This document shows positions 4,059 through 50,950 of a stretch of 64,000 nucleotides of DNA, in pieces. Numbering within the stretch: position 1 is the first letter of the stretch; each line of letters begins with the position of its first letter. The stretch covers positions 84,685,130 to 84,749,129 of the forward strand of contig CM059567.1 in assembly GCA_030386875.1 (NCBI GenBank). The letters are read 5' to 3'. This DNA comes from Morinoia aosen (lineage: Eukaryota > Arthropoda > Malacostraca > Amphipoda > Talitridae). A model generated the notes under the pieces. The model made no database searches. It was not told the origin of the DNA and was given only the letters and a program-made list of their open reading frames with translations. Both the position numbers and the translations under genes were made by a program.

Positions 4059-5790
4059 AAAAAATTCATGAACTTAATTCATTGCAGCTTATCATTGTTT
4101 TTGCCGACGATTCACCTGCACCTTGAACGCAAATTGTATTTCCGCCGCTCTTTGAACGCAGCTCGCTCGTTCACGTTGTTTTCTGTCCTCAGGTCTTCAT
4201 CTTCGCTATCAATTGTTTCATATTCGTTTCCGGTCCCTGGCTCAGCTGCGGCGTCCGACGTACCGGGGTAAGCCTCACCACGCAGGTGCGCAACCTTTAA
4301 TCTATTCAGGTGAACCCTTTCTTGACGGTCACCATACAATGCCTTGAGGGTCGCATTTGGGGCACTCTTTTCAATAATACGATACGGTCCAACCCAGTCG
4401 GTCGGCCACGCGTTTGCAGCTTCAGCTTTTCCTGTCGGATTGTGTAATAAGACGATATCGCCTGGTTGCACCTGGTTGTTTTTCACTCCTCTCTCCTTCA
4501 TTTGCAGACTTGTCGTGTGGCGCTTTTGATTTAGTCTTTACAATTTTGAACGCATTGTGGAGTCGGGCGCTATCCTCTGCACTGTAATTCTCCCCTAAAG
4601 AATAATCCATGCGAGGGGTTTTCAGCCAGTCAACAACAGGAATTTCGGCGTCCCGGCCAAAGAATAAATAGTACGGAATTTCTTCAATAACACTTTGGTA
4701 ACTTGTGTTCAGCGCCAAGCATGTCCACGAAAGTGCATCAGGCCATGATGATTGATCGTTGGCGGCAAGATGTGACAAAACCGTTTTGATGTTCTGGTTT
4801 TGCCGTTCTGTCATCCCGTTGGATTGGGGATGATATGCTGAGGTGTTGTAGTATTTTATTTTCAATTTTTCGCATACACGTCTGAATAAAGCTGACGTGA
4901 ACTCGGTGCCCCTGTCTGAGATGAGCGTTTTGGCAGGGCCGTACGTCGTCACGAATTTAGTCAACGCTTTCGTTACTTCCTCAGTTGTCTTGCTTCTGAG
5001 TGGGAAGGCTGCCACATATCTACTGGAGTGGTCAACCACGGTCAGGATGTACTTGTGGCCCTCATTCGAAACTGGCATTTCAATTAAGTCAACACCTACT
5101 CTATCCAGGGGCTTGTCAATTTCAGGGAATGAACCCATGCTGACACAAATGCGATTGTTGATCTTTCGCTTCTGACACTGCATGCACGAATCGACGTATT
5201 TGTTAACGTCGCGTGCCATGTTAATCCAGTACCCGAATTCCATGAGCTTTTTCCACGTTTTAGCACGACCTTGGTGGGCACCGATTGTGCTGTCATGTGC
5301 TAACGTTATCGCTGCTTCTCTCAGAGCGTCTGGCACAACGATCAAGTGCCTTGTTCTTCTATTAGGCTTTCGTTACATTTTTCTGTAATACAGTATTCCA
5401 TCATCGGCAAAAATTTCGGGAATCATTGCTAGACTTGGCACATTTCCCGTTTTGTCGCTCTCCAGGTAGCTTAGCACAGGCCCCCACACCTGATCCCTTA
5501 ATTGTTCTGCTCGCACATTTTCCTTCTGCAAGCTGCTTTCCGCTTCTTGTACACTGGGTGCTTCATCTAACATCGACGTGACGAACACTGTTTTAGGGGC
5601 TTCGTCGTCTTTATTTTCTTCTTCCCGCTGTTCGCGATGTTTCACGACAACGCGTCGGGCACAACGTTCTGAGCTCCAGGCCGATAAATTACCTCAAAAT
5701 CGTACTGTGAGAGTGTTAGTGGCCACCTCATAATTCTGTTGTTCTTGGTGTTTTTACCTTGAGATTTTGATTATTGTCCATGAGTTTTTT
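4059..5790 (-). mobile_element. Ty3/gypsy LTR retrotransposon fossil (3' pol part)
   Basis: The minus strand encodes the 3' part of a Ty3/gypsy-type pol. In order there are the last residues of an RNase H domain (motif of the type YRPGAQNVVPDALS), an H-H-C-C zinc-binding domain of integrase, the integrase catalytic core with its D, D and E context (DRGTEF, and YHPQSNGMTERQN), and a C-terminal region with a GPYRI motif followed by HLNRLK. The gag, protease and main reverse-transcriptase regions are not seen, and no flanking LTR pair was recognised. The copy is broken, with about three breaks in what remains, so it is a fossil. It still reads clearly at protein level, which suggests moderate rather than great age. 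Confidence 0.9.
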
Positions 5791-18700: not shown

Positions 18701-19285
18701 TTGTCGCTGAATGATAGCTTGGATCGAAATTTAGCTCAGGAAGAAAAGAGAAACGAACGATGCAGTTAAGCGGATGAGGTCATAAGCTTTCTTTTCGAAG
18801 AGAACGTTTACTGTTTAGCTTAACTTAACTCACTGAATGACTAATCTGACTTTAAAGTTCTACACTAATTAGCCATGTCTAAGCAAACCGTGAGTGGATT
18901 CAGTGAGCGTGTGCCCTGATGAACTCTCTCAGTAATATAATGTGTACGCTATCCAAGTTTTTAGTAATTGCGAAAAAGACTGGTAAAATACAATAAAACT
19001 CAAAAGTATGTAACTGTGTGTGATGGGTCAATTTTTACTTACAATATGAGATATGGTTAAAATGAAATTTAGTTCCTTCTCACAACTGATGCTCGAGTTT
19101 TACATTATGGCTTGTCTCAGATAACTGATTGGAACTGATTTCTGATTCCAAATTGGCAAATTTTGGCTGAAATTTATACAAAATATTCAAGTTGAAATAT
19201 TTTTTAAGCTTTTTTCGTAAACAACCACAGTTTACTATTTTTTGGTGATGGTTTTACTTTCTTTCACAAAAACACATCATAGGAA
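15797..19285. other. Unidentified DNA left of the CACTA-like element
   Basis: No gene or known element is supported. Short frames at 16,411-16,701 (minus) and 17,610-17,882 (plus) have the AT-driven composition of chance frames. A GC-richer spot near 18,530-18,620 was examined and matches nothing I recognise. Confidence 0.45.
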
Positions 19286-19309
19286 CCCAATTAAAAATCG
19301 GCGCAGTGT
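19286..19309 (+). repeat. Left terminal inverted repeat of the CACTA-like element
   Basis: It starts CCCAATTAAAAATCGGCGCA and continues GTGT. It pairs with 27,396-27,419, with one A/G difference at position 5. Confidence 0.85.
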
Positions 19310-19508
19310 TACTGCAGTGTAGGCGCAGGGTTAGTGCAGCGCTGAGTAGCGCGGCTGCGCAGAGGCTGCTCTCGGCCGCCACCTGAAGATGTCCGCCCAT
19401 TTGCGCCAGTCGCGCCAGTGCAGGGCTGCTGCACTAAACCTCCATTGAGCAGACTGCGCTGCCGCAATGCAACTAGTGGCCACCACTCGTAAGCCGTTAA
19501 AAAAATAA
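19310..19508 (+). repeat. Left subterminal repeat zone
   Basis: About 200 GC-rich bases in an AT-rich setting carry many variants of GCGCAGTG, CTGCAGTG, GCGCAGGG and GCGCCAGT in both orientations. In the CACTA family such arrays bind the element's own proteins; that role is inferred here from position and repetition. Confidence 0.7.
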
Positions 19509-19588
19509 CGCGCGCAGTCGAGGATTACTGCGGTGAACTGCTCTTAGTAATTTACTGCAGTTCACCGCAGTAACCTCGACTACGCGCG
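19509..19588. repeat. Long hairpin (arms of 33 and 32 bp)
   Basis: The left arm 19,509-19,541 and right arm 19,557-19,588 are inverted copies that differ at two places (one substitution, one single-base gap). The spacer is 15 bases. Arm core: ACTGCGGTGAACTGC. It closes the left subterminal zone and its words (GCAGT, CGCGC) recur at the right end of the element. Confidence 0.9.
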
Positions 19589-20777
19589 GTAAAAAAAATT
19601 AGGGTAGTAAAAATACTGTTTTGTTATTTTCACAACTTTACTCGTTCTTCGCTCACACTACGAAGAAAACTTGTTGTTGCATATCCTTTTTGCGTAAAAT
19701 AATCGGTCAGTATAACGTTTCGCCGTCATCATCGAAAATGAGCGTCGTCCATGTATAAAAAAATTTGCGTAGATAGCGATAATTATCGAGGCTGACTGCA
19801 AAAATGTTAGTGGGATATGAAACATACGCACATTTTTAGCCTACCTACTTAGATTGAGTTTGAAAAATAACAGGACGGAAGTTCAGTCATTTGGTTACTG
19901 GCCCTTATAAATACTTCACCATACATCGGAGTTACTCTGACTGTCAGAGCAACTATGAACTAATTCTAAATACATCCCTAATACAAACCGAAGTAATTTT
20001 TGACAGGATATTTTTATAGTTGGAGAGTGGTTAGAAAATTGTATAAAGTTGTTTGTGTTCCATGAAAATATTCAAGAGCTATTGGATTATGTATTCAAGA
20101 TTCGATAATTAAGTCACAGTATTTCCGACAGTCAGAGTAACGCCGATTTATGATATATCTGTCAATATTTTAACAACGCAGATACCTACACTAAACAATA
20201 AAATTCATTCAATGGCCCCAAAGCTACACATTTTAACAAATCTACAATTTATGCCCATTTATTTACGATGGAGGGCACAGAGTATTTCCGCAAACCTTGG
20301 TTACGAAATGGTAATATACCACGTATGGTTAGGTGAGCAGCTGTATTAGATAACTTAGAAAATATTATAATGATAGTTCAATTTCGGTAATTAGTAGTTA
20401 CTATAAAGAACCTCACATCTCTGAAGAATAAAATTTTTATGAGCCCCTACCGATGACCGGGATTAACAATATATTCGCGAATTCAAGCAAAATATTTAAC
20501 ACCGGCTATTCAATGATAAAATTCATCAATTGGATGTTTTTGATAGTAGAATTTACTTCCACGAATATGTTGTTTGGATGGGGAATGGCTTCTTTACTTA
20601 GTGCTCATGAAGTAATCATAAGTACAGATTAATCCTTGAGGCTCATTTAAATTATTTATTAACATTATTATTGGTAAGAATATTGGCATCCTACCTACAA
20701 GAGTATCAATTAAATGCATAACACATGCATCAATGGAACGTTCCAACTGCAAATAATGCTTTCGCGAAAATATCGCA
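19589..20777. other. Noncoding interior, downstream of the transposase gene
   Basis: No open frame of note is seen. It would contain the 3' untranslated region of the transposase gene. AATAAA occurs in both orientations, but none can be singled out as the used signal. Confidence 0.4.
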
Positions 20778-22967
20778 TTACTCTTGAGAATGAATCATAA
20801 CGATAGCAATGAAAAACTCATTATTAGGAATTATCATGAGCTTGGCGCGAACTTCATTTGTCGAAACTTTAATTGATTTTAAAAAGCCTTGCAGTCGGAA
20901 CACTCCTACCGCCATTGAATTCTCTGGCTCATTGAAGTATTCGCATGCAGAATAAACATCTACTCCTAGTGAATCTCCATCAATGTATTTAATAATCCCA
21001 AGTTCGCCACTCTTAAGAATAATCCCGTTATCTTTAGCACCAAGAAGTCCAGCTTTGTAACCAGTGTGACCAATGAAAATTCTTCCCTTTGAACTTTCGT
21101 TCTGAATTTCGGTCTTGTCAATTTTCTCATTTTCAAGACTCAAATGTTTCGCTAACTGTTCCAGTACTCTGTTCTTGCCTGTGAGCCTATATTTTATCAT
21201 GCCTAAATAATTTTCGAATGAGAAACATGAAATATTCCCTAAAGGCCCAAAATTTATATAATCGTCAACAAGATGGATAACACTGTGAACGTTATACGAT
21301 AAAAAACTATCACCGTAAATTTTTTTTGAGCCTTGCACAAAATTTTTGAGCATCTGTTCTACAGCTGGGATGTTATCCTTTTCACCGTCTACCAACAGTA
21401 GTCTCATAGACAAACTCAAGTAAAGAAAGTTTACATATTGAGAAGTGGGTAGTACATCTTTAAACAAAACAATGCCTACGTAAAGCAATACAAAACGAAA
21501 CTCTGTAGCTTTCCAAAATGAAACTGTGCGCATTCCTCCACTAAGTTTTCTAGAAAATTCTGAGGGAATGTGTTTTTGAAGTTCTTTTATGAATCCGTCA
21601 AGCGCAACAATTTTTTCGTCAGGCAAATGACACTTATTTTGATGCTTCTTACTAGATTTCAGCCTTAGCATGATCTTTTTTACAATCCCTAAACACACTA
21701 GGTGCATATAATCCAAGGGTACATTTGAAACCAAGCCAACGTTTAGATTTTCAAGCAATGACGTCACACCTGGTTTATGATGAGAAATATCGTACTTTGA
21801 GCGGAAGTTCTCATTGGTTCTTTTCGGTGCGTTCAAATTGGGTAATATTACATGCCCACCTGAATACTGGCCTTTTTGAACGCATCGTTCACAACTGTTA
21901 TAGCTATTATGATTGACGATACACTTCAGGTCTGCTCTAGCAACAGCATCAGCTACAATAGCATGCACTACAACAGGGTGACACTTTCCTCCTATACGGA
22001 TTCCGTTTCTCTCTAATATTTTAATGTCTGACAAAGTCTTTTCAAAAAGCGTATTGATGTGCGGCATTTTGTTGGATTGTTCATTTTCAGACAGATAAAT
22101 ACCCGCACAAATTATTTTATTCAATTTGAACACTTTTATTAGTATTGGATATGCGTGATGTTTCCTTGAATCGTTAAACAATGGAATTCCATCGATGTTA
22201 ATCAGCAATTTTATTACATTTGGAGCTTGGGTCTGAGAGTCGAGATGAGCTTTTAAAGAATTCGGCCAATTTTCAAGGTGAACGTAGCGTCCATATTGCC
22301 AGCAATCATACGAAATGCCCGAAATATCCTTAGCTGTCAAAGTTTTTGCTGTTAGTGACAGTCCAGGAAAAAATTCATGAAGATTGTGCAGTAGTTTTGT
22401 GACTGTAAGAGCAGGAACATTGGGGCAATCTACAGTCCAATTAACAATTGCAGCTTCTATTTTGTCTTCAGTGCTGAGAATTGTATCCGCCATCAGTTCC
22501 TTTGTCTGACATGAATTTGAATTGACCTTAGAACTTGCATAAGGAAGATCTTCAAGAGTATCCCTCAACGAATTTTCATCAGCAGAAGCCTCCAACTCAT
22601 TAGCTGATATTGAACCTGTAAGATCTGAAGAGGTACACTGGGCTTCATGGCTAACAAATTCATTGTTTTTCTTATTAGTAATAGCCAGAGGATTTTCAGG
22701 CGCAAAAACTTCGCACTCGTACTGCTGTGGTTTATGAATGATATTAGGTAAAGGGTCCAGTGAAGTATCGTGACGAGGAACACAGTCATGCTCAGAAGGC
22801 ACATTTTCAATCGAAGAAATATGACCATCTTGGCTTGCATGCTGATATTGACGATCGAGAGCAGTTGTTAACAAATTTTGGTTGCCAGTAGAGAGCAAGG
22901 GACCTTGTCTCCGCCGTCTCTTATGACGAGCTGACAGCGTGAGATAGGGTTTATATTTTTTCCCCAT
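20778..22967 (-). CDS. EnSpm/CACTA-type (Tnp2-like) transposase, 729 aa, intact
   Basis: One uninterrupted frame from ATG (22,967) to TGA, with no intron needed. Residues 1-165 are poorly structured and begin with a basic stretch (KKYKPYLTLSARHKRRRR, residues 3-20) that can serve as a nuclear signal. The conserved part starts near 165. The visible candidate catalytic acids are D259 in LINIDGIP, D419 in PLDYMHLVCLGIVKK and E585 in CFSFENYLGMIK, the usual D-D-E layout of Tnp2-like proteins. A zinc-binding knuckle (C349, H353, C359, C362) lies between the first two. The region around 560-592 (HSVIHL, then FENYLG) resembles the DUF4218-type end seen in plant and animal relatives. It lies inside matched terminal repeats, so it is the element's own gene. 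A domesticated host gene is the alternative, but the flanking repeats argue against it. Confidence 0.85.
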   Translation of the reverse strand: MGKKYKPYLTLSARHKRRRRQGPLLSTGNQNLLTTALDRQYQHASQDGHISSIENVPSEHDCVPRHDTSLDPLPNIIHKPQQYECEVFAPENPLAITNKKNNEFVSHEAQCTSSDLTGSISANELEASADENSLRDTLEDLPYASSKVNSNSCQTKELMADTILSTEDKIEAAIVNWTVDCPNVPALTVTKLLHNLHEFFPGLSLTAKTLTAKDISGISYDCWQYGRYVHLENWPNSLKAHLDSQTQAPNVIKLLINIDGIPLFNDSRKHHAYPILIKVFKLNKIICAGIYLSENEQSNKMPHINTLFEKTLSDIKILERNGIRIGGKCHPVVVHAIVADAVARADLKCIVNHNSYNSCERCVQKGQYSGGHVILPNLNAPKRTNENFRSKYDISHHKPGVTSLLENLNVGLVSNVPLDYMHLVCLGIVKKIMLRLKSSKKHQNKCHLPDEKIVALDGFIKELQKHIPSEFSRKLSGGMRTVSFWKATEFRFVLLYVGIVLFKDVLPTSQYVNFLYLSLSMRLLLVDGEKDNIPAVEQMLKNFVQGSKKIYGDSFLSYNVHSVIHLVDDYINFGPLGNISCFSFENYLGMIKYRLTGKNRVLEQLAKHLSLENEKIDKTEIQNESSKGRIFIGHTGYKAGLLGAKDNGIILKSGELGIIKYIDGDSLGVDVYSACEYFNEPENSMAVGVFRLQGFLKSIKVSTNEVRAKLMIIPNNEFFIAIVMIHSQE

Positions 22968-25900
22968 TTAAGATCGGTCTTAAATGTTCGGATAAACCCT
23001 AGGAAATAAATTCAATCTGAAAATATATACAAATGAAAAAATTAGACAATGTAACAAAGCACGTATGTGCAAGTGACTTAGTTTTGAATGCAATCGGCAA
23101 CATCATCAACACAAATACACTTGGTGCATAAATTAAAATAATGTGCTCTAATTTTCAACAACCTCGGTAGTAAAAAATATCTTATATTCAGCCTAAACCT
23201 CGAATCAATGACTAAAAATGTGTTAGATGTGATATTCCAAGTTAAATGAACAGGCTCAATAAACTTCACTCTTCATTCGCTGCGTTTCTAGTAAAATATA
23301 TCAAATTTCAAATGAGTTCAAAGTATTAATCGAAATCAAAATAGAATGATTTTGAAAAGCAATAGTGAGGAATACTCACATTAGGTTATTAGAAAAGACA
23401 ATGGTTGTTTACTTTGTAGAGTACTAGCAAAATGAAAAAAACTTCAATTAAACCAATTTTTATCTTTAACGGTTGATTTGAGGAGTAATAGTGACGAGAG
23501 TAATAGTAAAGGAGAACCCTTGATGAAGATCAAATCATTATTTGCAATGGTTTATATTAAGAGTAATACGGAAGTGGAACGGTGTATAAAATCTTTTTCT
23601 TTCAATAAATGAATTTCATTTTCATTGGTGTTGTGTACGATTTTCTATTCAGGAAGTAATACTTCATATTTCATACGTCGTGATGGTATTAAAATGAATC
23701 GGATATAATTACTTGCAATAACATTTTTAGAGGGGTCTCTCACATCGTATCCTCACGATCAACCAGACAATGAAGAGAATGGATTGGTTACGCATAATGA
23801 ATTAGAAAAAAATTTAAAATAACTGCTTGTATCTCTGAAAACTGTCCGTAAATAACCATAGAACACCATAAAACTTTACTGTTCAAAATTTAAAAATCCA
23901 GATTCCGAAAATGAATTATAAAATCCGAAAGATTCCAGCATAACTTTCTCAATGCCGTATCGGGAAATTTTATTTGCTACTGCATTTTATACCAGACTGC
24001 AAAAATTTGATGCAACAGCGAAAAGTTAGCCTAGAATTATTCCCTGCTCGTTTCTCGAACTTTCATCAAATGCAATAGTTTTCAAACCGTTAAGTTTGGA
24101 ATTGCTGAGCATCATCGGGACATGATCGTAACAGTTTAGAAACCTACCAGTGTGCTTAATTCATCACACAGTGTGACTGCCTGAGAATTTCCTCACATCA
24201 GGCGCAATATTGATGAGGATGAAATGCTTTTCATCGATATGTTTATTGTATTCTCCGCCTGATTTTATCATATGGTATGTATACAGCCTACAGTCTAACC
24301 AACACTGCGTGCAGTCACATATACTGCCTATGGTCTAACGCACACTGCCTGCCGACTCACGTACATTGCCTGCAGCCTCAAAGACTTCAAGCCCTATGTC
24401 GCCACGGGAAACAGCAAACGACGTGATTTTCACCGCATACGGCCTAGGAATGGCCCAAAACACGCATTTTAGCTCTGTCGACCGTGGAATCGGCTAAGAC
24501 TTCATAAAGGAAAAATTATCTACCTCATTTGGCCGATTTCAAATTATATATTAACTGATTTCAATATGCATTTTTGACTATAGAATCCGATAATCATAAC
24601 CATTTAATCGAGAAATCGAAACATTTTGAGTTATAGGTGTTTGAAGTTATTTATTTTCTATCTATTGCTAAAGGATAACAGACTTCAGAGATATTTATAG
24701 TCCTATTCTAGAATCCTAGAAAGAACGTGAGAAAAAAAATAAAATTTGGTGATACATATATTGTGCAATAATGACATCGTTTAAATTAACAATCAGCAAC
24801 TTTTTCTGAATCAATACCTTCGGGAAGGCTCAAGTAGATTCCTGGCATAGGCAGTTTCTTCAAAAATGTATTAATTACACCAGCTCCTGATTTGATTAAA
24901 TAGTTACGTTACGTAAAGTGTTGATATGTTCAACATTTTCTGATATTGTCGTTTTTCAGAAGGCCTAGTTGAAAATATTTTTTAAATTATAAACTATCAT
25001 TTTTAATAAGGCAAAAATTTTACAAACGAGTAAATTAGGCCTAGTTGTTAATATTTTTTTCGCTGTAAAAAATGGCAGGCTTAAATATTTATTCTGACAA
25101 ATAAAATGTCTAGGCCCTAACGGTATAAAAAATGAATTATTATTGACTTAAAAGTATTTGGTATGATTTAGTGGTCTGCTGTGAATATTTAGTTGCCTTT
25201 CATCTAAAATAGACAAACGTTTGCGGTATGCGCAACTGACACCAATACTGCTACGGTGTTTGAATGTTGATACCACAACTACCAAAGGACGAACGGACAA
25301 AAACATAAAAAGACGCACTATGTGCAACTAAACTGGATTCATAATGCAACGTAAACAACTCAAAAACCAACAGCCAACACAAACGAACCGGGATAAAATT
25401 TATTAGAGAAAGGTAAACGAGCGATCTTTCAGACTAAGTTAAGTTGCGCTGAACTCTGACGTCACCTTACTTCCCGCCAGCCTTTCAACGGTCGCAATGC
25501 ATGTGCTCGCGTGTACATAATTCGATGGACTCGAATGCACATACAAAGGAATGCTTTGGGAACATTCTACGATAAAAAGACAAAATATATACGAGGAAAA
25601 GGTTCTCAAACCTCCAAATGTCAATAAAATCCTAGTAATAGGATAAAAACTCAGTACATCTGACGTTAACATGATGCATGAAAAAAATACGAAAAATATG
25701 CTTACGATTCGAAGACATGGATCATGTAAACCTACACTAACAATACAAAACAGCTATAGGTCCGTATATGATGAATCAATGTTAGAGTCTGACGTAAACC
25801 GCAAAAACAACAACGACTTCCCTTCGCAAAATATCTCGCAAAAACCGAAATGTTCAATTTGTTACGACTTTTTAGCCTCTGACGACTCTATCAGTAAATT

Positions 25901-27229
25901 CTTGCTTAATCCACTTTTCAACACCTAACTTGTACGTTACTATAAAAAATCACTCATCTAAAAACTTTTTCCTTCTGTATGTTGAATTTCACTTCAGACA
26001 AACTAGCATTTCCCCTTAATCACATCAAAATCTAACCTAACCCTACACCGAGATTTCACCGGACTAACAATATCGATCGCACAACTTCTCTTCATTGACC
26101 CAAGATGACAACTGAAGTTAACCGGCGATCGGATAGGGGCTGCGGCATCGAAACTTAAAAATTTACTGCTTGTGTTCATTCGTCGTTCGTAACCAGTGTA
26201 ATCGAAGCAAAGGAAGCACAATTTGGAGTATTTAATGAAAATTTATATTGTAGATTCATGGTTGATTTTCATTTATGGTATTAAAGGGATCCATCACCGA
26301 AATGCCAGTTAAAAACTTTTAATTTATTTGAAAAAATTAAGGAATGATGACCGATGGACGACCTGGTTCACTGCCGCTGTTTATCGTACCAAGAACCCAT
26401 GTTGTCATACTACTTCCACAGTCACAATATTTTCATAACATTTTCGTTAAATTTCAATTAAAGTGTCAATATTGATAAATATGTATATCCTGAACAATTG
26501 GTAACAGCAACAAACTACCACAAGGGATTTTTTTTAAAATTGCACATTTTACCCTTAATGGAATGAGTACGTATATCAGGGCGAATGTTTTTAAAGATGT
26601 CATTAAGGGAATCAATCAATTCGTCATAATATGAAATTTTCATCATTGTATTATAAAAACTACGATCAAATAAAAGAATATGCTGAATATGATTCACTTC
26701 TTGATCCCAAGACCCTACCCTTTGAGCCATAAACGTTTAAAAGTTTTGTTTGTATAATAAATAGTTCATTACTCGTTATGAAGAATCAATGAAGTGTATA
26801 AAATAAAGTGTAACTACGATGTGTCCACATTACTTAAAATAAACCAGGAAATCATTCACAAATATTGTATTCATTTTATATGCCCTCAGGCGGTTCGTTC
26901 AATTAATGCATAACCATGTGGCGAATTTTTAGCATATTTCTTATTTTCACCACTTGGGCTACTTCGCAAAGAAGTATTGTAAATTAAATTACTTTTCTAT
27001 GTTCTATTAGTGGTGCCTGTGACAGACGCAGTGATTATTTTGGCATAGATGAAAAAATTATTTTCTGTTTTTTAATAACACACTCTCTTGCATATAAGAA
27101 TAAAAAACCATTGACAATAGAAACAAGCATGAACATGACTATATGTAATTCAAAAAGAATATAGAATATAGAATAAGTTCATTATTCTATATGTAATTCA
27201 ATATTAGAATGAACTTCAGTTGACCATTA
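22968..27229. other. Large noncoding interior, upstream of the transposase gene
   Basis: About 4.3 kb with no long open frame. It should include the transposase promoter. Short divergent frames at 25,439-25,672 (minus) and 25,671-25,928 (plus, with a CSICYDF pair of cysteines) and at 26,515-26,730 (minus) could be exons of a second element gene. CACTA elements often carry one, but none is recognisable. Confidence 0.35.
24280..24377 (+). repeat. 42-bp tandem repeat, about 2.3 copies
   Basis: The unit has the form TATACTGCCTATGGTCTAAC followed by GCACACTGCCTGC and CGACTCACG; copies differ at many places. The ACTGCCTGCAG word is similar in character to the subterminal motif of the surrounding element, so it may be an internal binding-site array (inference). 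Confidence 0.7.
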
Positions 27230-27395
27230 GCGGCTCAACGCAGTGAGTGCTGCGGTAACGCGCGTGTAGTTTTCACTGCGCTGAACTACTAGCGGCCACA
27301 ATTGATTTGCTGCAGCGACAACTACTGGAGAGAGGTGCTGCGCTGAACCTGCCCTATATCCACTTACTGCGCCGAACTGCAGTAAACCATTCGAG
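27230..27395 (-). repeat. Right subterminal repeat zone
   Basis: GC-rich island with repeated GCGCAGT, GCTGCAG, CGCAGT and AGCGGC words in both orientations, matching the character of the left zone. Confidence 0.7.
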
Positions 27396-27419
27396 ACACT
27401 GCGCCGATTTTTAACTGGG
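27396..27419 (-). repeat. Right terminal inverted repeat of the CACTA-like element
   Basis: Reading inward on the minus strand it starts CCCAGTTAAAAATCGGCGCA and continues GTGT. It pairs with 19,286-19,309. Confidence 0.85.
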
Positions 27420-28466
27420 AAAAATGCCTTATTCAAAGCTAGCTAAGACTCTCGCCGTGTACAAAGAGGGCTCTAAATAATAGAAGCAGAACTATGCCGA
27501 AATGTCCCACGGAAAGAAGCACAGAATACCTGGATGTGTTTTGATGGAATTTGATTTCATACACTTGTAAGACCTTCAAAGTGGCATGGTTTGGGAAAAA
27601 TATTACGTTCTATATTCTCTGTGCATCTTGAACCATTTCCCGAGTTGTTGAAAGGGAAAATAAATTTAATGTATTTGAAACGACACCATGATAGGAAAAT
27701 GTAAAACGCCCTTTATGCCTGAATGTATTTGAACCCTGGTTCAAGGAATTTAAATTGGCTTTTAATTAATGGTTGTATGGAGAGAGCTTCTGAATAAAAA
27801 ACAATTAGTGTCAGCAGTTATTTTACAAAGGTAGCTTCATAACTGGAGTAGGTATTTTATAATATATTGTCTAACAAACAAAATTATTCAATTAAAGAAT
27901 GCAGAATTCAACAAAAACACACGTATAAATGATGCTCATACAGCTTAGATGGACCAGCCCAAATTTGCTGGTCCACAAATTAATGGTAGACTGGCAAACT
28001 CGCCTCAACAATGAAAAGCATCTTCAGTGTTTGGGATGCTCCCGTGATGCTCTCACCCGCAACCTCTACGTGATGAGTGCAAATTTTGTTTCTACTCGCA
28101 ATCATTTCAGTGTTTTACTTCTATTTTTTATTACAAGATTTAAAAAAAAATTCTCTTGAGGCAGGTATTTAGGTAATTACCACTGCAGGAAGGAAAATTT
28201 GTGGTATGAATATGGAAAACTTCTTATTCCTGGCGACCGAGCTATGCTGAAGTGCTACTGGGGGTTGAACGTTAAAACATTTCTGAAGCAATTTTAATTT
28301 CACTAATATAAACATTCATTAAGCCACTGTTCTATACGAACGAGCAGTTAAGCCAATCCCCCTTCATCGACCTTGGTCGGCAAAACTTCATTCCCACACA
28401 TACGTAATAAAGTTCCGTTAGAAAATGAAATTATTTCATAGTTTTAACTTTATTTTTTTGATGTTC
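27420..28466. other. Unidentified DNA
   Basis: AT-rich, no gene or known repeat recognised. Confidence 0.45.
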
Positions 28467-34735: not shown

Positions 34736-35976
34736 GGTCTCTTCAATTTTTTAATTCACGGAGCTCCATCTTTTGACTTAATTCCGCTTCTCAGTGTAGC
34801 GCAAGCCTTCCTACTCACTCAGGTGAGAACCTTCATTACCTCTCCTAGCTGGCCGCCAGAGGGAGGGATATTTTGGGTAATTTGCTCTCATGTAGGGTTT
34901 ATCGTGTAGGTAACTTCCATTAATTAACCTGGCAATTATATTGAAATATGATTGTGTGGTTTTGCAAGGCATTCTGCCATGATTTCATTACACATTTTAT
35001 TCCATAGTCATTTCCATTTTATCTTTATGTGGCTCTTTACTTTTCCACCTTCAATTCCTTTGTTGACCTTTCTTGGTCTGTCTCTCCTCAGCCTGTTTAC
35101 AACTACCTCGCATTTCGTCAATGTCCTCTCTAGCCCAGAAATATTCATACCTTCTCTCACCTGTTTCTGGACTACGCAACACAGCAATGACGTCACAGTA
35201 GTTGTCACGATTTAGGTATAAATCTTTAAAGGAACCAGATGAAGTATAATTAGGTAGCTCCTCATATTCTTGTCACCCGAACTTTTTTCTCTTTGTGTCT
35301 TTACGTAGGAAATGTAAGCATATTATATGGTGTATGAAGAAAGACAAAGACGCAATGTTCGAAATTATTCGTGATTAGTATTTTTTTAGACTGACGTATT
35401 GAGTTTAGTATTATTTTGATATCTGTCCACATGTTTTCTTCTTGATTTTTGATTGAATTACCTTTACCTCTTCAAGGCATCCACGTCGACCTTGCTGCCT
35501 TGTTTTGCTGCTTACTAAATTGTTTTTCAATTTCTTTCTTTCTCCTTTTTATCGAATGCTCATACCGAACTTGCTGCTCAGACTTAACTCGTGTATGTGT
35601 TTCTGAATCTGGAAACAATTTAGATAGTCAAGATTTTTTAAATTCCATAAATAACTTCACTGTCACTTCGTTTTTAAATCCATTTCGTCCTTGCTACATC
35701 TTATAAGTGTTATATGCGGAAACCACTGGTACGACAGCCTTGTAACTACATTATTTGCCATTTATGATCCCTAATGTTCCTGCTCATGGACTGAATTTGC
35801 GCTCTCCTTATGAAATCATACTAGGTTTTAAACAATTTAGACTAATAATCTGTGTGTTTTTAGTTTCTCTTTTTTTTTTTTAATTTAATTCTAAGTAGGA
35901 ATGTCCTTATTTTTACCTTGATCCTGTAGTTTTTATCATTTTTATTTTTACGTTACATTTTACTTACTGTCTCTTA
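34736..35976. other. Unidentified DNA upstream of the LINE
   Basis: It may include the 5' untranslated region of the LINE that follows (a T-rich stretch at 35,860-35,885 and AT-rich leader). No ORF1-like protein of LINE type (zinc knuckles or coiled coil) was seen. The frames at 34,952-35,215 and 35,449-35,706 are unassigned. Confidence 0.4.
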
Positions 35977-37506
35977 ATGCTAATGACTGACCATGTTGAC
36001 ATTTTCGACAATATTGATCCAGATCTCAATCATTTTAATAGACTGCACCCAAACCTAAATGAAACTGAAAACTGTAAATACCTAAATATTAAAAAATTCA
36101 ATGAATCGATGAGGAAGACCTGTAACGATTTTTCTCTATTATGTTGGAACTGTAGATCCATTTATCCGAAAATAGATGAAATATCTTGTACTATCACTGA
36201 GCTGAACAGCAATTTTGATGTTCTCAGTTTCACAGAAAGTTGGCTAGACGACTCATCTAAAGACCTGCTTCAAATTCAAAACTATTATAGCCATCATTCA
36301 CTCCGTAGTAACAAACGTGGTGGTGGCATCAGTACGTACATATCTAAACATATATCTTCGAAAGTCATTTTAAGTGCAACTATGAATCGTGAACATATTG
36401 AGACTTTATTTATAGAACTAACGAAAAATGATAAACGGATTGTGCTTGGGACAGTATATAGACCCCCAACAGCTTGTAACGTCTCTTTCCTGAACGAGCT
36501 TCAAAGCATTATATCTCAGTTCAACAAGTCTCTATATAATGACATAATAATCTGCGGGGATTTCAACTACGATCTTCTACAATATGATAGCTGTGAGCAA
36601 ATCTCAAACTTCATAAATGTTTTTCGGTCTAGCTCCTTCCTTCCAATCATCACGAAACCTACACGTGTTGCTTCTGAATCGGCTACGTTACTCGATAATA
36701 TTTTTATGTTAGATCCGACTGATTTTCTTACCGGAATAATAATTTCTGACTTATCTGACCATTTCCCGGTGTTTCTCATCAAGAAAAATGTCTATAATCC
36801 TTGTTCCAGCCCACATGCTGATACTTATTCATTTCGTTGTGTAAACGAATACAACTTGGGAACAATGCGAACTGTTCTAGAAGAATTAATGCCATCATTA
36901 GACGTCTATGAACGGGAAAATAATGCGATTAACATTGATGAAGCAATACTAAATTTAACTGAAATTATAACGACCGCATATAACCAGTGTTGTCCAATAA
37001 TCACCCGCACAATTACGTCGAAAAATAGACAAAAGCCCTGGATTACTGAAGATATCGTGATCAATATAAAGAAACGTCAAGCGTACCTAGCCTTACTATA
37101 CGAAGGGCGAATATCTAAAGTAACGTATAACAAATTCAGGAATCATGTGACAAATCAAATACGAACCTCAAAACGAGACTACTTCACGCGCAAATTTACT
37201 GAATACAAAACTGATATTAAAAAAACTTGGCGCCTGCTTAATTCATGCTATAAACCGAATAATAATACTACGAAAATAATTGAGTCCGTCGTTCACGAAA
37301 ATGTAAAATACCACGAGAAAAAAGATATTGCAACTGTGTTTAACAACTTTTTTGTGAACATAGGAAAAAATATAGCCGATAGTGTCTTCAGTGAACCCAG
37401 AGACCACTTGCAATACATGGACCATGTCCGTGAACCTAACTCTTTCTTTTTCACGCCAACTAATCCCTCCGATGTAATTACGTGCATAAACAACTTGAAA
37501 AAATAA
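35977..37506 (+). pseudogene. LINE ORF2, endonuclease part (APE-type)
   Basis: The APE-type endonuclease nicks the target DNA to prime reverse transcription. Active-site landmarks are visible: N58 in CWNCRS, E87 in TESWL, YRPP at 161-164, GDFN at 194-197, TLLDNIF near 238 and SDHFPVF at 260-266. Residues 270-509 form the linker to the RT, including QKPWITEDIVINIKKRQ and the KRDYFTRKF block. The frame ends early at 37,506 because of a one-base slip in a run of A; the RT goes on in the next frame. The start ATG at 35,977 agrees with the family's usual N terminus. Confidence 0.88.
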
Positions 37507-37516
37507 ATCAAGTGGA

Positions 37517-38035
37517 TTGAAAAAATTTTCGGCTAAAGTTCTTAAGGCTATAGCTGATATAATAGCACCGTGCATATCTTATATTGTCAACCAATCCCTT
37601 TCTCAAGGTATCTTCCCCAACTCTTTCAAAATTGCGAAAGTCACCCCTATTTTTAAAAATGGTGATAAAAACTGCATTAACAATTATAGACCTATCTCTG
37701 TACGACCAATTATTAGCAAAATATTCGAGAAAATTGTGTATAAAAAAGTGTATTCGTATTTTGAACAAAAATCTTTCCTCTACGACAAACAATACGGTTT
37801 TCGTTCTAAGAAATCTACGACACAAGCTGTATTAAATCATTTGCAATACCTTTATTCTAATATAGATGAAGGAAAGCTTGTTTTCTCCGTATTTCTTGAC
37901 TTTCGAAAAGCATTCGATTGTGTGGACCATAACGTATTACTCTCGAAACTACATTGTTATGGCATTCGAGGGGCTGCCCATGATTGGTTTAGATCATACT
38001 TAGCAAATCGGAAACAATACGTTGTAATACGTTAA
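37517..38035 (+). pseudogene. LINE ORF2, reverse-transcriptase part (5' half)
   Basis: It encodes the RT fingers and palm up to motif A: FKIAKVTPIFKNGDKN, YRPISV, KIFEKIVYKKV, YGFRSKKSTTQAV and FLDFRKAFDCVDH, whose D is the first catalytic acid. It stops after QYVVIR. The expected PQGSVLGPLLF and YADD motifs that hold the other two catalytic acids are missing, which fits a deletion of about 100 codons. This copy cannot make a working enzyme. The decayed copy at 57.5-59.0 kb still shows both motifs. Confidence 0.88.
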
Positions 38036-38042
38036 GGTTTCA

Positions 38043-38784
38043 TTGTGGCATAAAGCTAATAAAATAAGCCTTGATATCGATAAAACCAAATATATTACAT
38101 TCTCATACAAGAAAAATATATCTCTCCCACGCATTCGAATTGGCGAAGGTGAAATCGAAGAAACAAACTCAAGTAAATTCCTCGGCATCATAATAGACAA
38201 ACATCTAACCTTTAAAGAGCACATCGCTCATATTAGTTCTAAATTATCAAAATCTATCGGAGTCCTAAATAAAGTTAAAAATTTCCTGCCTGAAACAGCC
38301 TTACATATGCTCTACCGAACGCTCATTTCACCATACTCGCAATACGGAATACAAACATGGCACGGAACTGATAAAAATAAAACCAACAAAATTTTTACCC
38401 TGCAAAAAAAAAACCATAAGAGCGGTAAAGAATCTAGAATATAATGCTCACACAAATGACTCATTCAAAAATTTACGAATACTTAAGCTCTCGGATCTCT
38501 ACAAAATCTCCATTTGCAATTTCATTTACAAAACATTAACAAATGAAGGCGACAATAGCCTAAAACAACTATTAACTGCGCAAACTGGTCATCACGACCA
38601 TTTAACCCGAAATAGAAGTAAATTCACGCTTCCTTATTACTCAAAGGCTCGGTCACAACACAGTATCCTTTTCGTTGGAACTAAAACTCGGAACTCAATA
38701 CCTGCGGAGATCCGTGAAAGTAATTCTTATAAGGTATTCAAAAAAAGTCTTGAGTCTCCTTCCTATAGATTACTAGTCGTGTAA
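38043..38784 (+). pseudogene. LINE ORF2, C-terminal part
   Basis: It resumes after the deletion with ISLDIDKTKYITFS, then SSKFLGIIIDKHLTFKEH and KVKNFLPETALHMLYRTLI. A frameshift in a ten-A run near 38,404 moves the rest (LEYNAHTNDSFKNLRILKL, TRNRSKFTLPYYSKARSQHS, NSIPAEIRES) to another frame, which ends with a TAA at 38,784. Homopolymer slips like this can also be assembly errors. Confidence 0.85.
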
Positions 38785-49793: not shown

Positions 49794-49882
49794 GTCAAAG
49801 GACACATTAAGAGGGCACTCTGACAGATCATTCCTAGGCGAAGGTTAAATTCAGTGTTGTGTTTGGCGTTCGACTGTGTGTC

Positions 49883-50950
49883 ATGTACACAAATCAGGAG
49901 CTGGCAGAGATGCACTTGATCTACGGTAAGGCAGACGGCAATGCTGCGCTGGCTCGTCGTTTGTACCAGGAGAGGTACCCACAGCGACAATGTCCAGATC
50001 GGAAGACATTTGTAAGTCTCCATCAGCGTCTGTGCGAGTATGGAAAATTTGACTCTCCTGGATTGGGAAGGGGACGACCAAGATCTACAACTCCAGAAGA
50101 ACAGGAGGAGATTCTGGAGATTGTGAACAGAACTCCTTCTATCAGCACACGAAGGTTAGCGTTGCAAGTGAATGTTCCCCATACGACTGTCTGGAGACTG
50201 CTGAAAGAGTATCAATTGTATCCTTACCATTTGCAACGTGTACAGGCGCTGTCACCAGCAGATTACCCTGCACGAGTTAGGTACTGTCAGTGGTTCTTGC
50301 AGCAATGTGCTGCAAATCCGAACTTTCCTGCCTTAGTATTATTTACAGATGAAGCACAGTTCACACGAGATGGCATAACAAATCTCCACAATCAGCATGT
50401 ATGGGCGTATGAAAACCCAAATGCAACTGTTGTATCTCATCACCAGGTGCGGTTCTCCCTCAACATGTGGGCCGGTATCATTGGTGATCGGTTAGTTGGA
50501 CCCCATGTACTTGTAAACAGACTTACGGGGCAGGCGTACACAAACTTCCTGGAAAACATCATACCTGATGTTTATGACGACACTCCACTGATCGATCGTC
50601 AGCATGCTCACTTCTTGCATGACGGCGCTCCTGCACACTTCAGTCGTACGGCTCGCCGGTACTTGGATCGAAGATTTCCTGATCGATGGATAGGTAGAGG
50701 TGGCCCAATTGCTTGGCCTCCACGCTCACCTGATCTGAACCCTCTCGATTTCTACTTGTGGGGCCATTTAAAATCATTGGTTTATTCGTCTCCGGTGCCT
50801 GATTTGGAATCCCTTCGGAATCGAATTGTGGCACGCTCTGAGGACATACGCAACATTCCTGGAGTGTGGGATCGTGTTCGCAGGTCAATGAGACATCGAT
50901 GTGAGGTCTGTATTCAAGCAGGAGGTGGTCATTTTGAACATCTTCTGTAA
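49883..50950 (+). CDS. DD41D mariner transposase, 355 aa, intact
   Basis: It would cut the element out and insert it at TA. The ATG at 49,883 starts MYTNQELAEMHLIYG; the open frame also extends 24 bases upstream, without an ATG. Residues 1-120 hold two helix-turn-helix units with the linker GRGRPRSTT (62-70) and the second helix TRRLALQVNVPHTTVWRLL (89-107). The catalytic domain has D156 in FTDEAQF, D247 in LHDGAPAHF and D289 in SPDLNPLDFYLWG. There are 41 residues between the last two, hence DD41D. No stop or frameshift is seen up to TAA at 50,950, which lies just before the right terminal repeat. Length 355 aa is typical. The protein may be functional. Confidence 0.94.
   Translation: MYTNQELAEMHLIYGKADGNAALARRLYQERYPQRQCPDRKTFVSLHQRLCEYGKFDSPGLGRGRPRSTTPEEQEEILEIVNRTPSISTRRLALQVNVPHTTVWRLLKEYQLYPYHLQRVQALSPADYPARVRYCQWFLQQCAANPNFPALVLFTDEAQFTRDGITNLHNQHVWAYENPNATVVSHHQVRFSLNMWAGIIGDRLVGPHVLVNRLTGQAYTNFLENIIPDVYDDTPLIDRQHAHFLHDGAPAHFSRTARRYLDRRFPDRWIGRGGPIAWPPRSPDLNPLDFYLWGHLKSLVYSSPVPDLESLRNRIVARSEDIRNIPGVWDRVRRSMRHRCEVCIQAGGGHFEHLL

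What the first reader, a model, noticed from the sequence alone, without database searches (positions are those of the whole stretch)
19286..27419. Complete 8.1-kb CACTA-like element with atypical CCCA ends
A Tnp2-like transposase gene of 729 codons with no break lies inside matched terminal repeats and GC-rich subterminal motif arrays. EnSpm/CACTA elements are best known from plants and normally begin CACTR; here both ends begin CCCA(A/G)TTAAAAATCGGC. Either the ends have changed or this is a separate animal lineage. Size, intact gene and preserved ends make it a candidate for a recently active and possibly undescribed family.
Basis: partly seen in the sequence, partly recalled or inferred. 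Interest (0 to 1): 0.85.

Follow-up and report, generated by a model that had tools for sequence, protein, structure and literature searches.

The report
Young jumping gene missing one gene
This is a recently multiplied cut-and-paste transposon of a kind already known from animals, whose CCC ends are normal for that kind; the copy in the window has lost the second of two genes that longer relatives in the same genome carry.

Summary
The element is real: 8,134 bp, a 24-nt terminal repeat (23 of 24 paired), GC-rich subterminal motifs, and an unbroken 729-codon transposase gene. It belongs to a young family. At least 40 near-identical left ends lie in the 2.0-Gb host genome, 33 of 35 two-ended copies have a 2-bp target duplication, and empty sites exist. 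The CCC ends and 2-bp duplication match what DeMarco et al. 2006 described for animal CACTA-like "TRC" elements (Aedes CCCAGTCAAC; PMC1636069). The copy is not fully complete: 14 of 41 classed copies carry, just downstream of the transposase, the start of a predicted 7-exon second gene. Undisturbed, such copies measure about 11.6 kb, and the 8-kb class is an internal deletion of that form. The start of the second gene is conserved beside the transposase in three other families of this genome. The form without it looks younger and is more often intact: 18 of 27 stop-free against 3 of 14. The window copy also holds a private satellite-like unit. Verdict: new family of a known kind.

The parts
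19286..27419 (.). whole transposon copy, 8,134 bp, short class (transposase, no second gene)
19284..19285 (+). left copy of the 2-bp target site duplication (AA)
27420..27421 (+). right copy of the 2-bp target site duplication (AA)
19286..19309 (+). left terminal inverted repeat CCCAATTAAAAATCGGCGCAGTGT
   Evidence: 23 of 24 paired with the right end
27396..27419 (-). right terminal inverted repeat, begins CCCAGTT when read inwards
19286..19615 (.). left GC-rich subterminal region with ACTGCGC / ACTGCAG / GCAGTAA motifs
27210..27419 (.). right GC-rich subterminal region with the same motifs
19525..19573 (.). hairpin in the left subterminal region, core arms 19525-19541 / 19557-19573 (17 of 17 paired)
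   Evidence: one search folded 19500-19580 (z -9.6, 0 of 200 shuffles as stable)
20778..22967 (-). transposase ORF, 729 codons plus stop; D259, D340, C359-C362, H561-H565, E585
20426..20427 (.). deletion junction: longer copies carry about 3.6 kb here with the second gene (minus strand, 7 predicted exons)
24393..24495 (.). private insert in this copy, absent from 19 of 19 other fetched copies that hold the region; matches a satellite-like repeat clustered on contig C26 (match runs 24393-24497)

Best explanation
A copy of a young cut-and-paste DNA transposon family of the CACTA/EnSpm-Mirage-Chapaev clade, resembling the type called TRC in animals. Inferred mechanism: its DDE transposase binds the CCC ends and the repeated subterminal motifs, cuts the element out, and joins it to a target with a 2-bp stagger, preferring AT-rich sites with pyrimidines to the left and purines to the right. 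The full form is about 11.6 kb with two genes on one strand: the transposase, then a predicted 7-exon gene whose N-terminal part is conserved in related families of the same genome, most likely an accessory DNA-binding or regulatory protein comparable in role to plant TnpA. The window copy belongs to an 8.0-kb class that lost the second gene by one internal deletion between short A/T tracts. That class has spread more recently than the long one, moving with its own transposase and either without the second protein or with it supplied by long copies.
For: SHOWN. Ends and ORF. Copies: 40 left ends at 99-100%; 63 transposase matches, 29 spanning the protein, 21 of those stop-free. TSD: 33 of 35 two-ended copies have the same dinucleotide on both sides, shuffled pairing 0.14, binomial p about 5e-26. 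Empty sites: joined flanks of the copy at C4:35555704-35563275 match in 36 of 40 scored places over all 98 bp, 91-93% identical (one sequence); L009 sits in a tandem array whose neighbouring units show the uninterrupted site. Clade residues D, D, C(2)C, H(3)H, E invariant in 4 families of this genome, the pattern given for the clade in PMC12730594. Long form: 3.6 kb extra between element bases 1141 and 1142 in L014, L023, L025, L028, and partial remains with other breakpoints in L009, L018, L019, L020, L022. Second gene: in L025 seven exons, six GT-AG introns and agreeing phases give an uninterrupted 393-aa reading. Its start lies beside the transposase of three other families; alignment scores were reached by 0 of 2000 shuffles in 5 of 6 pairs and by 2 of 2000 in one. 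Age: star-like tree; terminal branches average 0.32% in 16 short tips and 0.54% in 9 long-type tips, p 0.015. INFERRED: binding to motifs, role of the second protein, supply in trans.
Against: Pfam Transposase_21, present in SmTRC1, does not match this protein and passes its cut-off nowhere in the genome search; only DUF4218 matches, below cut-off. No reference TRC or EnSpm protein could be aligned, so placement rests on motifs, ends and TSD. Shared substitutions in the transposase show no significant purifying selection (19 of 31 nonsynonymous, p 0.08; singletons 111 of 147, as neutral). Two of 35 copies lack a matching TSD. Of the five copies in which I read the second gene, one (L025) is uninterrupted with all splice sites; L009 is open but one donor is CT, L028 has a stop, L023 has two stops and an altered acceptor, and in L014 one exon end was not found. 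The tree is unrooted, and L018 and L019 are one insertion duplicated. Neither transcription nor movement was observed. A single-sequence structure prediction was uninformative (mean pLDDT 31.8).
Confidence: 0.88

Rival explanations
1. The 8.0-kb form is the original transposon and the 3.6-kb segment with the second gene was captured later by one lineage.
For: Copies without the second gene have most of the intact transposase genes (18 of 21 stop-free full-length ORFs).
Against: Copies with different partial remains of the segment (165-167 bp, 1,048 bp, 3,578 bp) point to repeated deletions from the long form. The short junction lies between two A/T tracts of the long form. A homologous gene start lies downstream of the transposase on the same strand in three other families at 33-48% transposase identity, so the two-gene layout is older than this family. 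Short copies have shorter terminal branches.
Confidence: 0.06
2. A separate, unknown superfamily of animal transposons with CCC ends, not CACTA-like.
For: No Pfam Transposase_21 match; ends are CCC, not CACTA or CA..TG.
Against: All clade residues are present; weak DUF4218 matches, below cut-off, around the H(3)H/E region in three families; CCC ends with 2-bp duplications are on record for animal CACTA elements.
Confidence: 0.04
3. A domesticated transposase gene kept by the host, with chance repeats around it.
For: Unbroken 729-codon ORF.
Against: Dozens of near-identical dispersed copies with the same ends, 2-bp duplications and empty sites.
Confidence: 0.01
4. The short copies are not self-sufficient: the second protein is essential and comes from intact long copies, so the short form is a partial parasite. 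(This concerns how the short form moves and is compatible with the main explanation, so its odds do not add up with the other rivals.)
For: Three long copies with a stop-free transposase remain; at least one copy has an uninterrupted second gene (L025).
Against: Nothing here tests need for the second protein; the class without it has multiplied most recently.
Confidence: 0.35

Closest known systems
TRC elements of animals (SmTRC1 of Schistosoma; Aedes and Tribolium TRC), DeMarco et al. 2006, PMC1636069 (passages and sections 6 and 8 seen)
   Same: Ends begin CCC (Aedes: CCCAGTCAAC); 2-bp direct repeats at the insertion; similar size (Aedes 9.2 kb); CACTA-like transposase; in SmTRC1 clone B4 a second spliced ORF follows the transposase ORF in one transcript.
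   Different: This protein gives no Transposase_21 match. Different terminal repeat beyond CCCA. The paper reports no detectable conservation of the other proteins, whereas the second gene's start is conserved among four families here. No sequence comparison with SmTRC1 was possible.
Spongebob / EnSpm-4N1_HM of Hydra, PMC4298943 (passages seen)
   Same: Terminal repeat CCCAGCCAACATTGAC, 2-bp TSD, filed as CACTA/TRC.
   Different: Its transposase could not be resolved in that paper because of stops and frameshifts; here 21 full-length copies have an unbroken ORF.
Plant CACTA/EnSpm (En/Spm of maize)
   Same: DDE transposase of the same clade, subterminal motifs, a second protein, internal-deletion derivatives (plant features partly recalled).
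   Different: Plant ends are CACTA (stated in PMC1636069) with usually 3-bp TSDs (recalled); here CCC and 2 bp.
Plavaka (fungi), PMC12730594 (passages, sections 15 and 16 seen)
   Same: Same broad CMCT clade; PlavakaA makes 2-bp TSDs.
   Different: Plavaka ends are TGT..ACA or CATCA..TGATG; fungal.

Membership tests
[quoted passage not shown]
   D259, D340, C359-C362, H561-H565, E585 invariant in 4 aligned families. Which residues are catalytic was assigned by me from motif order.
CMC/CMCT clade of DDE transposons | TSD of 2 to 5 bp | tested here: met
   2 bp in 33 of 35
CMC/CMCT clade of DDE transposons | CA..TG termini 'in most cases' | tested here: not met
   CCC..GGG; the source says 'in most cases' only, and TRC elements with CCC are on record
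Animal TRC type of CACTA/EnSpm | terminal repeats beginning CCC | tested here: met
Animal TRC type of CACTA/EnSpm | 2-bp direct repeats flanking the ends | tested here: met
Animal TRC type of CACTA/EnSpm | Transposase_21 domain (PF02992) | tested here: not met
   no hit at E up to 1; 33 matches in the genome at E up to 10, none over cut-off and none at the transposase places of this family (compared by eye). Only DUF4218 (PF13960) below cut-off. So I call it TRC-like, not a proven TRC member.
Animal TRC type of CACTA/EnSpm | transposase groups with SmTRC1 in a tree | not testable with these tools
   no reference TRC/EnSpm proteins held
Canonical CACTA (plant EnSpm) | CACTA core at the ends and 3-bp TSD (TSD length recalled) | tested here: not met
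   CCC ends, 2-bp TSD
Plavaka | TGT..ACA or CATCA..TGATG ends | tested here: not met
Domesticated host gene | single or low copy, no ends, no TSD | tested here: not met

The most novel reading that the evidence does not exclude
Animal TRC-like transposons share an uncharacterised second gene (start motif KKFxGIxF...VxPxxWL...WP, in this family followed by a stretch that looks coiled-coil), an ancient transposition partner. In this genome its loss produced a transposase-only derivative that has overtaken its two-gene parent within roughly the last 0.3% of divergence. That would be a natural experiment on whether the partner is dispensable or can be supplied in trans.
Probability: 0.4. Interest if true: 0.5.

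Novelty: new member of a known kind. Interest (0 to 1): 0.36.

Why it matters
Animal CACTA-like elements are, to my knowledge, much less studied than plant ones. This family has dozens of near-identical copies, intact transposases, clean 2-bp duplications, and forms with and without a second gene side by side. It could show whether these elements need a second protein, as plant En/Spm does (recalled). It also corrects the idea that CCC ends are an anomaly.

Tried and rejected
Considered and rejected: changed CACTA ends (CCC is on record for animals); a host gene; a late capture of the second gene.

My recollection that the second protein is a DUF4806 protein was tested and not supported: no hit for the spliced protein, and by eye, not by script, I saw none of the 150 DUF4806 matches in the genome inside a transposon copy. 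The termini of the 738-aa family were not reached: 38 of 40 scored matches cover the whole 2.65-kb stretch downstream of its ORF. Selection on the transposase: not significant. The two flanks of one site are not correlated. One search had a script error (both flanks read from one locus for 16 copies) and is superseded. In one search the search strings recovered exons A, B, D, E, G in 5 of 5 copies, C in 2 of 5 and F in 0 of 5; one search repeated this with better strings.

Rows dropped before counts: one of 36 copies in the TSD count (C5:39844115, right end not found by exact match). In one search, 41 of the 63 rows were classed; of the other 22, 21 do not reach residue 729 and one short piece (C9:5473367, residues 656-729) does reach it and lies in a long copy. 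'Short' there means no first exon of the second gene within 1.2 kb in the capped list; four of the 27 have the spacing of the other, 167-bp deletion type. In one search loci L027 and L035 are the same copy (counted once). L018 and L019 appear to be one insertion duplicated with its flank; only L018 is in the TSD count, both are in the tree.

Literature: that I found no paper on this second gene or on this terminal repeat rests only on searches in the held open-access library, of which five papers were opened, in passages or named sections, none whole.

Full report
OBSERVATION. The window holds a 24-nt inverted repeat at 19286-19309 and 27396-27419, 23 of 24 paired. A single open frame of at least 100 codons, 729 codons long, lies on the minus strand at 20778-22967. 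The terminal regions are GC-rich (0.54 and 0.52 against 0.35) and carry repeated ACTGCGC, ACTGCAG and GCAGTAA words beyond chance. The left subterminal region also folds into a strong hairpin.

FAMILY IN THE SAME GENOME. The window lies in a 2.0-Gb assembly of 29 contigs with no name. The left 201 bp occur in 40 scored places of 72 candidates at 99-100%, the right 200 bp in 40 of 133. The pattern CCCARTTAAAAATCGGCG with up to 2 mismatches occurs 520 times against 114 for the reversed control. The transposase has 63 listed matches; 29 span the whole protein and 21 of these are stop-free. Pairing the 40 left ends with the nearest right ends within 40 kb gave 27 elements: 9 of 8,021-8,036 bp, 5 of 11,610-11,694 bp, the window copy of 8,134 bp, and 12 of other lengths.

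TARGET SITE. Of 36 copies with both ends sought, one was dropped (right end not found); 33 of the other 35 are flanked by an identical dinucleotide, against 0.14 in shuffled pairings. L027 and L022 are the exceptions. Most duplications are TA, AA, AT or TT (24 of 33). Pooled flanks show pyrimidines to the left and purines to the right, although the two sides of one site are not correlated. Empty sites: the joined flanks of the copy at C4:35555704-35563275 match over the whole 98 bp in 36 of 40 scored places (122 candidates), 91-93% identical (sequence of one). Copy L009 lies in a tandem array whose neighbouring units give the uninterrupted site, with the element flanked by TA on both sides.

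THE LONG FORM AND THE SECOND GENE. Projecting 20 fetched copies on the window copy showed that L014, L023, L025 and L028 carry about 3.6 kb between element bases 1141 and 1142 (window 20426/20427). L009 has nearly all of this segment, L020 its first 1,048 bp and L018, L019 and L022 its first 165-167 bp, with differing deletions. The breakpoints differ, so I take the long form as the parent and the 8.0-kb class as one deletion of it; the short junction lies between A/T tracts of the long form. The extra segment, on the same strand as the transposase and just downstream of it, can be read as seven exons. In L025 all six introns are GT-AG, the phases agree and the 393-codon reading is uninterrupted. 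In L009 the reading is open but one donor is CT; L028 has one stop; L023 two stops and an altered acceptor; in L014 one exon end was not found. The 108 exon matches in the genome have 89-99% identity (105 scored of 2,299 candidates). This is a prediction; no RNA data were available.

CONSERVATION OF THE SECOND GENE. Three other transposase families of this genome, with 48%, 34% and 33% identity to this one, have the start of a homologous gene downstream on the same strand. The six pairwise alignment scores were equalled by 0 of 2000 shuffles in five cases and by 2 of 2000 in one. A more distant family (L039) has a different downstream reading frame. The spliced protein matches no Pfam family, and my recollection of DUF4806 was not supported.

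WHICH FORM IS WINNING. Of 41 transposase copies classed, 27 lack and 14 have the first exon of the second gene; 18 of 27 and 3 of 14 are full-length and stop-free (Fisher p 0.009). Four of the 27 have the spacing of the 167-bp deletion type. An unrooted tree of shared DNA is star-like, with the copies holding all or part of the segment on one branch (support 0.94). Terminal branches are 0.13-0.56% (mean 0.32%, 16 tips) in short copies and 0.26-0.88% (mean 0.54%, 9 tips) in the others, p 0.015. Variants found in one copy only are as nonsynonymous as neutral (111 of 147), shared variants slightly less (19 of 31, p 0.08). I read this as recent bursts from few source copies; the years are not calibrated.

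PRIVATE SATELLITE UNIT. The window copy has a 103-bp segment at 24393-24495. It is identical or nearly so to a satellite-like repeat with most of its 40 best places on contig C26 and others on C12, C11 and C22. In 19 of 20 other copies about 4 bp stand there; L020 lacks the region. Filler DNA captured during break or gap repair is the likeliest cause (inference).

MECHANISM. Shown: ends, duplication length, empty sites, copies, conserved residue pattern D259, D340, C359-C362, H561-H565, E585. Inferred from the clade: cut-and-paste by a DDE transposase bound to ends and subterminal motifs, 2-bp staggered strand transfer, and internal deletions by interrupted gap repair. The role of the second protein is inferred from its position, its conservation and the analogy to plant TnpA (recalled).

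COMPARISON. DeMarco et al. 2006 (PMC1636069; passages, sections 6 and 8 seen) described animal CACTA-like TRC elements whose repeats begin CCC (Aedes CCCAGTCAAC, Tribolium CCCTAGTAGC...), with 2-bp direct repeats (in SmTRC1 in 7 of 14 copies), and in SmTRC1 a second spliced ORF after the transposase ORF. A Hydra element with CCCAGCCAACATTGAC ends and 2-bp duplications was filed there too (PMC4298943, passages). A 2025 survey (PMC12730594, passages and sections 15 and 16) gives the residues of the clade. Daphnia CACTA elements were classed by their terminal repeats with reference to DeMarco et al. (PMC2884549, passages). So the ends are normal for an animal element. One TRC feature, the Transposase_21 match, is not met, and no tree with reference proteins could be made; I therefore call it TRC-like.

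VERDICT. A real, young, multi-copy family of a known kind; the window copy is an internally deleted version that keeps the transposase, with a private satellite insert. The most interesting part is the conserved second gene and its loss in the class that spread most recently.

Noticed in passing
window 24393-24497: A private unit of a satellite-like repeat inside this transposon copy; most of the 40 best places of the repeat are on contig C26, others on C12, C11 and C22, with neighbouring partial units at about 119-bp spacing.
   Followed up: partly
L037, L038, L085 (G000:C20:48137600-48142800 and C25:45272900-45275600): Another abundant TRC-like family with a 738-aa open frame; 38 of 40 scored matches cover its whole 2.65-kb downstream stretch at 97-100%. 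Its ends were not reached.
   Followed up: partly
G000 genome-wide: 150 scored DUF4806 matches, all over the Pfam cut-off, many with identical scores, suggesting that this domain is carried by repeats here.
   Followed up: no
G000, e.g. C19:32041279 and C17:15634114: Further CACTA-like lineages with open frames of 873 and 943 aa that match Transposase_21 weakly, below cut-off.
   Followed up: no
L039 (G000:C4:66495000-66497900): Distant 796-aa CACTA-like transposase whose N-terminus looks like C2H2 zinc fingers (recalled pattern), followed by a different downstream reading frame.
   Followed up: no
window 49838-50947: 370-codon open frame that looks like a mariner/Tc1-type transposase (recognised from memory).
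   Followed up: no
window 35899-38781 and 4115-5372: Open frames that look like a LINE endonuclease/reverse transcriptase and a retroelement integrase (recognised from memory).
   Followed up: no
L018 and L019 (C21:74.87 Mb and 74.56 Mb): Copies with 99.7% identical 600-bp left flanks in opposite orientation 0.3 Mb apart: a recent segmental duplication or an assembly effect.
   Followed up: no
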